From: Methanoregula sp.
GTDB taxonomy: Archaea > Halobacteriota > Methanomicrobia > Methanomicrobiales > Methanospirillaceae
Length of the DNA: 10,856 nucleotides
Reading direction: 5' to 3'
Assembly (NCBI GenBank): GCA_003157895.1
Contig: PMKW01000064.1
Span: 21,693-32,548, forward strand
Under the pieces are notes generated by a model. That model was not told where the DNA came from, ran no database searches, and saw only the letters and a list, made by a program, of their open reading frames with translations. The position numbers were made by a program, and so were the translations under genes. Below, piece by piece: positions 2,363-7,431 of this stretch. Position 1 is the stretch's first letter; every line of letters begins with the position of its first letter.

Positions 2363-2660
2363 TTCACATCAAGGTATGGAGCATAGGGAAATATTCCGGC
2401 GATTCGCACTGAAATACGGGCATGAACCTATCGGATTCTCGTCGAAAAGCCGAAAACCATTATGTATTCATTACAGAATTAACGTACCTTAATCATCCCG
2501 GAAAAAATTCCGCCCTATCTCCTCCCTTACCGTAGTAAACAGGTCGAAGAATCCACCGGATTCTTCTCCCATCCCGGCCTATCGGGCTTCTATGCTTCGA
2601 AATTTTTCGCAGTTAACGCCAGATTGATGAGCTTTGGTCCCAAAGGGTCATTGATCTGTC
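2363..2660. other. Divergent intergenic region between the CDF and beta-propeller genes
   Basis: No credible ORF is present. The stretch holds several dyads: CGGAA/TTCCG around four A (2499-2512), a perfect 9-bp hairpin (2546-2566), and CGAAA/TTTCG around two T (2598-2609). It should carry both divergent promoters. I cannot place the rightward one with confidence, and the start at 2661 has only a weak ribosome site. Confidence 0.5.
2546..2566. promoter_or_regulatory. Perfect 9-bp inverted repeat with 3-base loop
   Basis: GAAGAATCC (2546-2554) and GGATTCTTC (2558-2566) are exact reverse complements around ACC. The site lies 95 bases before the beta-propeller start. The left arm with its flank, TCGAAGAATCC, resembles TCGAAGAATGC found twice in the gap before aspS (5801-5811 and 5890-5900). 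It could be an operator or a leader hairpin. Confidence 0.4.
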
Positions 2661-5622: not shown

Positions 5623-5640
5623 GTGGAGTGAGACCAGAAT

Positions 5641-5676
5641 GACTGCATATCGCTCTGGCAGTCCCGGAATTTCCGG
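5641..5676. repeat. Two adjacent dyads upstream of the leftward membrane-protein gene
   Basis: GACTGC (5641-5646) pairs with GCAGTC (5658-5663) across 11 bases. The next base begins CCGGAA-T-TTCCGG (5664-5676), a perfect 6-bp dyad. They lie 62-97 bases upstream of the start at 5579, behind its TATA box, where a regulator could bind. Confidence 0.35.
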
Positions 5677-5825
5677 TGGTACCGCACAGGATAGTCCGAG
5701 TCCGACTTGCGGCTGGCATTTCACTTCCTGGAAACTGGCTGGAGAGGTTCTGAGGGATAATCGTTCCCTGCCAGATGCACCTGATTGAAACGGCGCCAGT
5801 TCGAAGAATGCTTACACGTTCGATC

Positions 5826-5862
5826 AAAAACCTGCGGCCGGTTGAGGAACCTTACGGTTTTT
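5826..5862. repeat. Nested inverted repeat ending in a T5 tract
   Basis: AAAAACC (5826-5832) pairs with GGTTTTT (5856-5862), and inside it GGTT (5840-5843) pairs with AACC (5848-5851). Either strand ends the stem in five T, as a bidirectional terminator would. No annotated rightward gene precedes it, so a terminator role would imply an unannotated transcript. Confidence 0.35.
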
Positions 5863-5914
5863 CTCCTGCTTCGGAATTGGTGGGGGTCATCGAAGAATGC
5901 GTGTGCATTCCTCG

Positions 5915-5945
5915 CATCTCTCAGGTCTGATGACCTTCGAGATTC
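5915..5945 (+). repeat. Covarying dyad element, copy 1
   Basis: Outer arms ATCTC/GAGAT and inner arms AGGTC/GACCT are separated by TC on each side and enclose TGAT (5928-5931). It matches 6031-6061 at 27 of 31 positions. The four differences are two paired changes that keep both stems: C-G to G-C in the outer arm and G-C to A-T in the inner arm. Confidence 0.7.
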
Positions 5946-5988
5946 AGCAGAACCCCGGCAATGAGAAGGGAAACTTCAGCAAACCTTC

Positions 5989-6006
5989 GAAGTTCTGATG
6001 AACCTC
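5989..6006 (+). repeat. Related TGAT dyad, intermediate copy
   Basis: GTTC (5992-5995) and GAAC (6000-6003) flank TGAT (5996-5999). Past an A/C mismatch, GA (5989-5990) pairs with TC (6005-6006). The core TCTGATGA is shared with the two longer copies, but the outer arms are not. Its left arm also pairs with AACTTC at 5972-5977, so two alternative hairpins are possible. Confidence 0.45.
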
Positions 6007-6030
6007 AGCACGTCGAAGGCTTCGTCTTCT

Positions 6031-6061
6031 CATGTCTCAAGTCTGATGACTTTCGACATTC
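6031..6061 (+). repeat. Covarying dyad element, copy 2
   Basis: Outer arms ATGTC/GACAT and inner arms AAGTC/GACTT, again separated by TC on both sides, enclose TGAT (6044-6047). Architecture and spacing match the copy at 5915-5945 exactly, and both stems are perfect despite changed arm sequence. It ends 78 bases before the aspS start. Confidence 0.7.
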
Positions 6062-6066
6062 TCCAG

Positions 6067-6090
6067 CCCGTCTTTCTGTTGGAAGACGGG
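6067..6090 (+). repeat. 10-bp hairpin upstream of aspS
   Basis: CCCGTCTTTC (6067-6076) and GGAAGACGGG (6081-6090) pair over ten positions, with one G-T wobble, around loop TGTT. TTACAATAAAC follows, so there is no T tract. It may be the 3' end of a small RNA, a boundary element or a regulator site before the aspS promoter. Confidence 0.5.
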
Positions 6091-6138
6091 TTACAATAAA
6101 CTCCATTACCTCCCCCGGCTCATAGATATAAGATTCTG

Positions 6139-7431
6139 ATGCGCATCCTCATCAACGAAGTAACACCGGCAACCGGTTTTACGGAGGTCTGCGGCTGGGT
6201 CCACGAGGTCCGTGACCTCGGCGGCCTTGCCTTCATGCTCGTCCGTGACCGGACCGGTATCATCCAGGTGACCATTCCGAAGAAGAAAGTCCCAGAAGCA
6301 GTCCTTGCTGCGGTCAAGGCCGTCTCCCGCGAGTCCGTTGTCCGGGTTACCGGCCCGGTCAAAGCTATGGAGAAAGCTCCCGGTGGCCGCGAGCTCGTGC
6401 CCGAGTCCATCGAGATCGTAAGCCTTGCCGAGACCCCACTGCCGCTCGATGTTTCCGAGAAGGTGCCGGCCGAGCTCGATACCCGGCTCGACGCCCGCTT
6501 CCTCGACGTACGGAGGCCCCGCGTGGCGGCGGTCTTCGAGATCCGCTCCGCTGCGATGCATGCGATCCACCAGTATTTCCACCATGAGGGATTCACCGCC
6601 ATCACCACCCCGAAGATCGTGGCAGCAGCAACCGAGGGTGGGACCGAGCTCTTCCCAATCGCTTACTTCGACAGGGAGGCGTTTTTGAACCAGAGCCCGC
6701 AGCTCTATAAGCAGATGATGATGGCTGCCGGCTGCGAGAAAGTATATGAGATCGGCCCGATCTTCCGGGCGGAAGAGCATAATACCACGAAGCACCTGAA
6801 CGAGGCCACGAGCATCGATATAGAGGTCTCGTTTGCCGATCAGAACGATGTTATGCGCATCCTTGAAGACGTCATCGTGAAGACTTACGCGTACGTGTAC
6901 CGCTCCTGCCCGGATCAGCTCGCAAACCTTGGGATCACCGATTTTACGGTGCCGACAGCCCCGTTCCCCCGGCTGCCCTATGCCGAGGCTATAGGGATCG
7001 CAAAGAAGGGGATCGAGGAGCCGATCAAGTATGGCGACGACATCAGCCCGGCAGCCGAGCGGGCAATCGGTGCAGAGATGGGGGGCCACTACTTCATCGT
7101 GGACTGGCCTTCTGAAATCCGGCCGTATTACGCCATGCAGTACGAGAACGATCCCTCGATCTGCAAGGCGTTCGACCTGATGCACCCACGGATGGAACTC
7201 TCGAGCGGGGCCCAGCGGGAGCACCGGTACGACCGGCTTGTACAGCAGATCAAAAAGAAGGGGCTCAATCCCGAGAGCTTCGAGTTCTACCTCCGCCCGT
7301 TCCGGTACGGCATGCCACCCCATGCAGGCTGGGGCCTCGGCGCCGAGCGGCTGGTCATGACCATGCTCGGCCTTTCAAACGTACGGGAAGCCGTGCTCTT
7401 CCCCCGCGATATGCACCGGCTCGTTCCCTGA
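6139..7431 (+). CDS. aspS: Aspartyl-tRNA synthetase, archaeal type (probably non-discriminating)
   Basis: The 430-residue class II enzyme attaches aspartate to tRNA-Asp in the cytoplasm. The N-terminal OB-fold anticodon domain (about 1-105) contains GWVHEVRDLGG and RDRTGIIQVT. The catalytic domain carries TATEGG-like AATEGGTELF (163-172), QSPQLYKQ (185-192), motif 2 FRAEEHNTTKHLNEA (209-223) and motif 3 GLGAERL (399-405). It ends FPRDMHRLVP, as archaeal AspRSs do. Length is normal and no core motif is missing. Two anticodon-domain positions are H22 (in GWVH) and P81 (in EKAPGG). By the known comparison of Thermococcus kodakarensis AspRS (W26, K85) with the Methanothermobacter enzyme (H, P), this pattern predicts a relaxed enzyme that also makes Asp-tRNA-Asn for GatCAB. 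The ATG fits the family N-terminus. Ribosome-site signal is weak. It is followed after 58 bases by the methionine synthase gene on the same strand. Confidence 0.96.
   Translation: MRILINEVTPATGFTEVCGWVHEVRDLGGLAFMLVRDRTGIIQVTIPKKKVPEAVLAAVKAVSRESVVRVTGPVKAMEKAPGGRELVPESIEIVSLAETPLPLDVSEKVPAELDTRLDARFLDVRRPRVAAVFEIRSAAMHAIHQYFHHEGFTAITTPKIVAAATEGGTELFPIAYFDREAFLNQSPQLYKQMMMAAGCEKVYEIGPIFRAEEHNTTKHLNEATSIDIEVSFADQNDVMRILEDVIVKTYAYVYRSCPDQLANLGITDFTVPTAPFPRLPYAEAIGIAKKGIEEPIKYGDDISPAAERAIGAEMGGHYFIVDWPSEIRPYYAMQYENDPSICKAFDLMHPRMELSSGAQREHRYDRLVQQIKKKGLNPESFEFYLRPFRYGMPPHAGWGLGAERLVMTMLGLSNVREAVLFPRDMHRLVP

What the first reader, a model, noticed from the sequence alone, without database searches (positions are those of the whole stretch)
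5915..6061. Repeated two-stem dyad with complete covariation between copies, before aspS
Two 31-bp copies, 116 bp apart, share 27 positions. Each folds into outer 5-bp stem, TC/TC mismatch, inner 5-bp stem and a TGAT centre. All four differences form two compensating pairs, one in each stem. Drift in a plain repeat would break pairs, so the pairing itself appears to be under selection. A third, looser copy with the same TCTGATGA core lies between them. This could be a duplicated structured RNA motif (small RNA or leader) or a set of symmetrical protein-binding sites. I know of no described element with this exact form.
Basis: seen in the sequence. Interest (0 to 1): 0.78.

Follow-up and report, generated by a model that had tools for sequence, protein, structure and literature searches.

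The report
Self-nesting hairpin repeats in Methanoregula
The two matching hairpins in front of this methanogen gene are copies of a small repeat scattered by the dozens through some related archaea; its paired bases change together while its unpaired bases stay fixed, and copies sit inside one another, which suggests a tiny mobile DNA element moved by an enzyme not yet known.

Summary
In detail: two 31-bp dyads (5915-5945, 6031-6061) whose four differences form two compensated pairs. They are not an aspS feature. They are right-hand hairpins of about 47-60-nt double-hairpin units of a dispersed family in Methanoregula and kin: TC-[GAAGA..TCTTC hairpin]-TC-linker-outer stem-TC-[5-7 bp]-TGAH-[5-7 bp]-TC-outer stem. 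A covariance model with no training row from this genome finds both copies (E 6e-11). Across copies the stems vary with compensation, while the unpaired TC/TC internal loop and the TGAH loop stay constant. Seven of 39 genus genomes hold at least 45-139 units each, the other 32 hold 0-6. In seven loci of four genomes and two genera a unit sits exactly at the 5' edge of another family hairpin's 4-nt loop, after TC, and window copy 1 appears to lie inside an older minus-strand unit. Best reading: miniature mobile hairpin elements inserting after TC. Y1/RAYT transposase, reverse transcriptase and IS110 transposase had no match in any of the seven rich genomes, so the mobiliser is unknown. Mobility is inferred, not observed; RNA or protein-binding roles remain possible.

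The parts
5892..5945 (+).
   Evidence: R2 match 5890-5942, 55.3 bits, E 6e-11; R1 match E 6e-8; boundaries
5916..5943 (+). Right hairpin of unit 1: outer 5916-5920/5939-5943, TC 5921-5922 and 5937-5938, inner 5923-5927/5932-5936, loop TGAT 5928-5931
   Evidence: folds so on both strands
6015..6061 (+). Double-hairpin unit 2 (47 nt): short left hairpin from GAAGG, right hairpin = copy 2; preceded by TC (6013-6014), ends ATTC
   Evidence: R2 match 6013-6058, 55.3 bits, E 6e-11; R1 E 1.5e-6
6032..6059 (+). Right hairpin of unit 2: outer 6032-6036/6055-6059, TC 6037-6038 and 6053-6054, inner 6039-6043/6048-6052, loop TGAT 6044-6047
5946..5990 (-). First part of an older unit on the minus strand, interrupted by unit 1
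   Evidence: weak R1/R2 minus-strand matches 5990-5935 (E 0.034, 0.08); aligns to intact units in L056, L088, L201
5870..5891 (-). Second part of the interrupted minus-strand unit
   Evidence: joined with 5946-5990 it matches L088 and L201 at 17 of 22 positions (9 of 22 in the shorter L056 row); 7 of 5000 random window 22-mers do as well
5986..6006 (+).
   Evidence: R2 8.7 bits, E 0.62: not significant alone
2544..2594 (+). Partial unit: good left hairpin, eroded right hairpin, in another intergenic gap of the window
   Evidence: R2 31.8 bits E 6.7e-6; R1 E 1.8e-4
6139..7431 (+). aspS, downstream neighbour, not part of the element
   Evidence: PF00152, PF01336
5037..5579 (-). Upstream divergent ORF, no Pfam match, not part of the element

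Best explanation
The dyads are right-hand hairpins of about 47-60-nt non-coding double-hairpin units that form a miniature mobile DNA family. Shown: many dispersed copies, patchy among relatives; stems that vary with compensation around constant unpaired TC/TC and TGAH; units sitting exactly between stem-TC and the 4-nt loop of other family hairpins. Inferred: a unit moves as a hairpin-forming single strand recognised mainly by its unpaired bases, is joined 3' of a TC, often in an extruded family hairpin, and arrays then grow by nesting and slippage. Because recognition ignores the paired letters, stems drift as long as they pair. The enzyme is unknown.
For: Copy number and patchiness: R1 finds 45-139 units in 7 of 39 genus genomes and 0-6 in the other 32 (lower bounds); R2 rings in 29 of 232 genomes of the order, among them another genus (g8) with 21 and 18 hits in G172 and G178 (at most 25 scored per genome). 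Structure; outer stems, not used for selection, Watson-Crick in 360 of 429 positions. Nesting at one exact position in 7 loci: G023 four, G015, G028, and G178 of another genus. Window copy 1 splits an older unit. A 46-nt family segment is present in G002 and absent at the G028 site. Larger composites of about 440 and 790 bp that carry units are in G028 and not in G002.
Against: No movement was observed. No Y1, RVT_1 or IS110 match in any of the 7 rich genomes, so no mobiliser is in hand. Only one small, clean presence/absence site was found in about 320 kb of G002/G028 synteny, and slippage or deletion can make some of these patterns. In the loose junction test host stems of at least 6 bp occur in 6 of 50 units against a shuffled mean of 2.0 and maximum of 6; in the exact-junction test 5 of 47 against mean 0.82, maximum 4 (shuffling brings hosts with alike arms together). 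The joined window host did not fold into the expected two hairpins. Junctions are ambiguous by 2-4 shared bases.
Confidence: 0.7

Rival explanations
1. Structured RNA module: hairpins act in transcripts (mRNA ends, leaders or processing sites) and a protein reading the unpaired bases keeps the pairing; spread through the genome is secondary.
For: Loops and internal loops conserved and stems free is the usual pattern of functional RNA; in tandem gaps the TC strand is the gene sense strand in 21, opposite in 12, mixed in 4 of 37; divergent gaps hold 7 of 59 element-bearing gaps against 106 of 478 gaps in the sampled contigs.
Against: The strand bias is weak and shrank with sampling (one search gave 10:1:2). 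12 opposite cases. Absent from most close relatives. No Rfam match. Which strand folds is unsettled: inner non-Watson-Crick pairs favour the GA strand 20 to 8, outer ones 15 to 19.
Confidence: 0.15
2. Dispersed DNA sites for a structural or replication protein that binds extruded hairpins; copies spread by an ordinary process and are kept for binding.
For: Symmetric hairpins with constant unpaired letters, dozens per genome.
Against: Close relatives with complete genomes (G036, G037) have 0 R1 hits; nesting and arrays are not needed for such a role.
Confidence: 0.07
3. Selfish drift without a dedicated enzyme: replication template switching and slippage copy hairpins, and the same mechanism corrects one arm from the other, which mimics compensation.
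For: Tandem arrays with near-identical units (L052, L089); in one G002/G028 orthologous array a whole stem pair is replaced with TC and loop kept; no known mobiliser found.
Against: Does not explain constant TC and TGAH over variable stems, nor insertion of whole units at one position in unlinked hosts.
Confidence: 0.07
4. Archaeal box C/D sRNA, because TCTGATGA contains a box-C-like TGATGA and a box-D-like CTGA (box letters recalled, from no call).
For: Letter resemblance only.
Against: The letters are the loop and closing pairs of a covarying hairpin; no Rfam family at E up to 1 over 5780-6145.
Confidence: 0.01

Closest known systems
PATEs and SMRs of Haloquadratum walsbyi (PMC3119063, passages seen)
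   Same: Archaeal, short, transposase-free, palindromes near the ends, no clear target duplication; one kind (SMR-A) inserts into the palindromes of others, mobilisation called enigmatic
   Different: PATEs relate to IS605-type transposons; here no Y1 transposase in 7 rich genus genomes nor in 8 same-family genomes. Units here insert into their own kind, and stems vary while unpaired letters are constant
REP/REPIN with RAYT (PMC3116915, passages seen)
   Same: Dispersed extragenic hairpins, doublets as the unit, ordered tandem clusters; compensated changes in the hairpin are reported there too
   Different: REPINs are tied to RAYT (Y1) genes; none found here. The two hairpins here are different from each other and in tandem, not inverted REPs
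Mitochondrial double-hairpin elements, GC clusters and RHEs (PMC4478555, PMC2800124, passages seen; Allomyces elements only as cited there)
   Same: Small hairpins in intergenic DNA, patchy, mobiliser unknown; yeast GC clusters are flanked by a short repeat (AG or ACT)
   Different: Mitochondrial; in the passages seen stems are conserved and loops vary, the opposite of this family
IS110/IS1111 and REP-targeting IS (PMC11208160, PMC1525189: search listing and abstract starts only)
   Same: Site choice in repeated palindromes; a shared core dinucleotide at the junction (core recalled)
   Different: Those encode a transposase; PF01548 has no match in the 7 rich genomes

Membership tests
REP/REPIN-RAYT | Y1/RAYT transposase in the carrier genome | tested here: not met
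   PF01797: 0 matches in each of the 7 rich genus genomes, 5 of 39 others match; 0 of 8 same-family genomes. Six of the seven rich genomes are drafts
REP/REPIN-RAYT | Many short extragenic palindromes | tested here: met
   R1 counts; by a crude ORF heuristic 106 hairpins in gaps and 43 inside called ORFs, 32 of those 43 in ORFs under 250 aa or in none
REP/REPIN-RAYT | Doublet of inverted REPs | tested here: not met
   Left and right hairpins differ and stand in direct order
PATE (IS605-derived) | Palindromes near the termini, no target duplication | tested here: inconclusive
   Two hairpins fill the unit; 2-4 bases are shared at junctions
PATE (IS605-derived) | Ends like those of an IS605-type transposon in the genome | tested here: inconclusive
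   No Y1_Tnp match in the rich genomes; TnpB-only elements were not searched
Retroelement-mobilised repeat | Reverse transcriptase in the carrier | tested here: not met
   PF00078: 0 in the 7 rich genomes, 8 of 39 genus genomes match
IS110/IS1111 | DEDD transposase in the carrier | tested here: not met
   PF01548: 0 in the 7 rich genomes, 4 of 39 match
MITE of a DDE transposon | Terminal inverted repeats shared with a transposon, target duplication | not tested
   No DDE transposase search was run; GAA..TTC at the ends is only 3 nt
Known structured RNA family | Match to an Rfam model | tested here: not met
   0 at gathering scores over the window; 0 at E up to 1 over 5780-6145
Functional RNA | Transcription and processing of the copies | not testable with these tools
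   No RNA-seq here

The most novel reading that the evidence does not exclude
A new transposition system in archaea: an enzyme other than Y1/RAYT, reverse transcriptase or IS110 recognises hairpins by their unpaired bases (TC/TC, or tandem GA/GA on the other strand, plus the TGAH loop), leaves the paired sequence free to drift, and joins units at the 5' edge of hairpin loops, building nested arrays.
Probability: 0.3. Interest if true: 0.82.

Novelty: new variant of a known kind. Interest (0 to 1): 0.6.

Why it matters
Small palindromic repeats are common, but what moves or keeps them in archaea is mostly unknown. Here the unpaired letters are fixed and the paired letters free, which makes recognition by shape testable, and the nested copies give an exact insertion site (stem-TC|loop). 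The usual mobilisers were not found in carriers, while close relatives lack the repeat, so gene-content comparison could name the enzyme. It also warns against reading covariation between two copies before a gene as a leader RNA.

Tried and rejected
aspS leader or operator: rejected, hairpins upstream of aspS in 3 of 30 genomes. My first upstream survey and first tree used minus-strand loci without turning them; both are void for those genomes and were replaced.

Y1 (IS200/IS605-type) mobilisation was my first mechanism; the enzyme was not found. Reverse transcriptase and IS110 were tested next and not found. TnpB, DDE transposases, HUH Rep proteins and site-specific recombinases were not tested. 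RT and IS110 were not tested in the other genera.

Strand bias to genes looked strong at first (10 same, 1 opposite, 2 mixed) and weakened with more loci (21, 12, 4). The wobble test for the folded strand is split.

Nested copies: the pattern search of 13 genomes listed 10 places; read, 5 are nested units (L291, L294, L295, L298, L300; the L294 host arm has one mismatch), 1 is an ordinary unit (L296), 2 are slipped copies in one array (L297, L299), 1 is unclear (L293), 1 looks unrelated (L292). Two more came (L164, loop TATC; L234, loop AGAT). One search listed 11 interrupted hairpins, of which 3 are these nested units (L082 and L298 are one locus, L083 and L295 another, L278 and L291 another), against 3 in the reversed control. 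L085, first thought nested, lacks the host arm and was dropped.

G002/G028 comparison: of 6 gaps of at least 18 nt printed, 2 concern the family; the 107-nt one shares TTCTCCA at its ends and may be a deletion.

Vectors: two unit patterns, exact, found nothing in viral contigs; 5880-6070 had no match in phage or plasmid records.

Limits: training rows of R1 and R2 were picked for a paired inner stem, so inner-stem covariation there is partly by choice; outer stem, left hairpin and one search are not. In one search one of five measures (further pair types) was not unusual (116 of 500 shuffles). Counts are lower bounds: at most 146 candidates (R1) or 25 (R2) were scored per genome. One search counts most orthologous pairs twice (changed: TC and loop 2 of 152, stems 24 of 272, flanks 135 of 2207) and includes a few hairpins that may not be family.

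Full report
What is there.

It is a dispersed family. Searching 39 genus genomes with 5640-6138 gave many short matches at unlinked places, mostly in G002, G008, G015, G023 and G028, many of them over the dyads. Reading them showed one architecture: TC, a left hairpin GAAGA..TCTTC, TC, a short linker, an outer stem, TC, an inner stem of 5-7 bp, loop TGAT, TGAA or TGAC, the other arms, TC between them. A rule-based scan of the loci then held gave 127 hits against 3 for the reversed sequence. R2 and R1, whose rows come from G002, G023 and G028, find both window copies (E 6e-11 each with R2; 6e-8 and 1.5e-6 with R1).

The structure is real. In contiguous stretches, TC-N6-TGAH-N6-TC is paired in 16 of 77 cases (1.3 expected by shuffling arms), the 7-nt form in 14 of 166 (0.6), the 5-nt form in 4 of 141 (0.1), the 9-nt form in 10 of 77 (0.8), while the 4- and 8-nt forms give 0 of 131 and 1 of 168. 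Outer stems, on which nothing was selected, are Watson-Crick at 360 of 429 positions over 143 hairpins. Covariation scores are 0.443 (13 units) and 0.389 (15 units) against shuffled means of 0.141 and 0.140; sliding partners by one column lowers pairing from 95-97% to about 50%. The constant letters are the unpaired ones. On the other strand the TC/TC loop is a tandem GA/GA, and that strand is the more stable in 51 of 56 hairpins as RNA and 53 of 56 as DNA; which strand matters is open.

Distribution. R1 finds 50, 122, 65, 78, 45, 133 and 139 units in G000, G002, G003, G008, G015, G023 and G028, and 0-6 in the other 32 genus genomes (E up to 0.01, lower bounds). R2 over 232 genomes of the order rings in 29: 15 of this genus, 6 of g8 (2 to 21 hits), one each of g12 (weak) and g17 in the family, and 6 in another family with weak matches. 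On an aspS tree of 30 genomes the six rich ones present (aspS of G008 is in pieces) fall in one clade of 14 (100/99) but mixed with genomes of 0-6; the label needs 4 changes, at least 3 on firm branches, and is only mildly clustered (32 of 500 shuffles as low). Placement: of 59 element-bearing gaps 37 are tandem, 15 convergent, 7 divergent, the sampled contigs having 265, 107 and 106 such gaps.

Nesting. In seven loci (G023 four, G015, G028, and G178 of genus g8) the order is host 5' arm ending in TC, a unit beginning GAAGA and ending TTC, the 4-nt loop (TGAT in five, TATC and AGAT in two), host 3' arm. Host arms and inserted stems differ among them, so I take them as separate events at one position. 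In the window, taking out 5892-5945 joins a minus-strand unit whose 22 nt beyond the junction match intact units at 17 positions, reached by 7 of 5000 random window 22-mers; read on its own strand the inserted unit again follows TC. The joined host has three extra bases by the junction and does not fold cleanly, so it is an old or damaged copy. G002 and G028 (aligned blocks mostly 85-96% identical) differ at one clean site by a 46-nt family segment that shares ATTC with its flank, and G028 has composites of about 440 and 790 bp with units where G002 has 3 and 7 bp between anchors. In one orthologous array a stem pair has been exchanged as a whole, GGGGTC/GACCCC for AAGGTCC/GGACCTT, with TC and loop kept.

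How it most likely works. A unit is copied or moved as a hairpin-forming strand, read by its unpaired bases, and joined after TC, family hairpins being favoured targets; tandem arrays grow by slippage. The single-strand step and the reading of unpaired bases are inference. Y1 transposase, reverse transcriptase and IS110 transposase have no match in any of the seven rich genomes, one of them a single-contig assembly; a divergent, lost or different enzyme is not excluded.

Compared with what is known. It works like PATEs/SMRs, REPINs and mitochondrial hairpin elements (PMC3119063, PMC3116915, PMC4478555, PMC2800124: passages seen). It fails the enzyme test of RAYT-linked elements, and its conservation pattern is opposite to that reported for the mitochondrial ones. 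I found no description of it in literature searches (open-access library), nor the words repeat, palindrom, hairpin or transpos in the M. formicica genome note (PMC4155587). An archaeal REP survey (PMC12306157, passages) names no Methanoregula in the table seen.

Verdict. Observation confirmed; aspS reading not supported; pairing claim strongly supported over the family; a new variant of small palindromic mobile repeats whose mobiliser is unknown.

Noticed in passing
window 6079-6138; last 60 nt before aspS in L001-L030: A block like CCATAAA-TCCATTA..CCCAT-GTTATAGGATTTTG just before the aspS start is alike in nearly all 30 genomes read, unlike the hairpins; perhaps the promoter or leader.
   Followed up: no
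window 2544-2594: Partial unit with a good left hairpin and an eroded right one in another gap of the window.
   Followed up: partly
G028:C18 about 85798-86055 (L166): Four copies of a 79-nt non-coding unit with a GAAGGC-ATCA-GCCTTC-type hairpin, in a larger composite absent at the G002 site.
   Followed up: partly
G028:C18 125384-125620 (L168): A tandem hairpin repeat of another sequence (GACTGGCTATAAAGCCAGGAGC..) with 277 nt between anchors in G028 and 61 in G002.
   Followed up: no
G121 (genus g29, another family of the order): Eleven weak R2 matches, best E 5.4e-4; could be a distant or unrelated hairpin repeat.
   Followed up: no
G178:C1 about 1931550-1931650 (L297, L299): A 19-nt piece TGATGAACCTTTCGGATTC repeated after TC within an array, as if segments bounded by TC are exchanged or slipped.
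   Followed up: no
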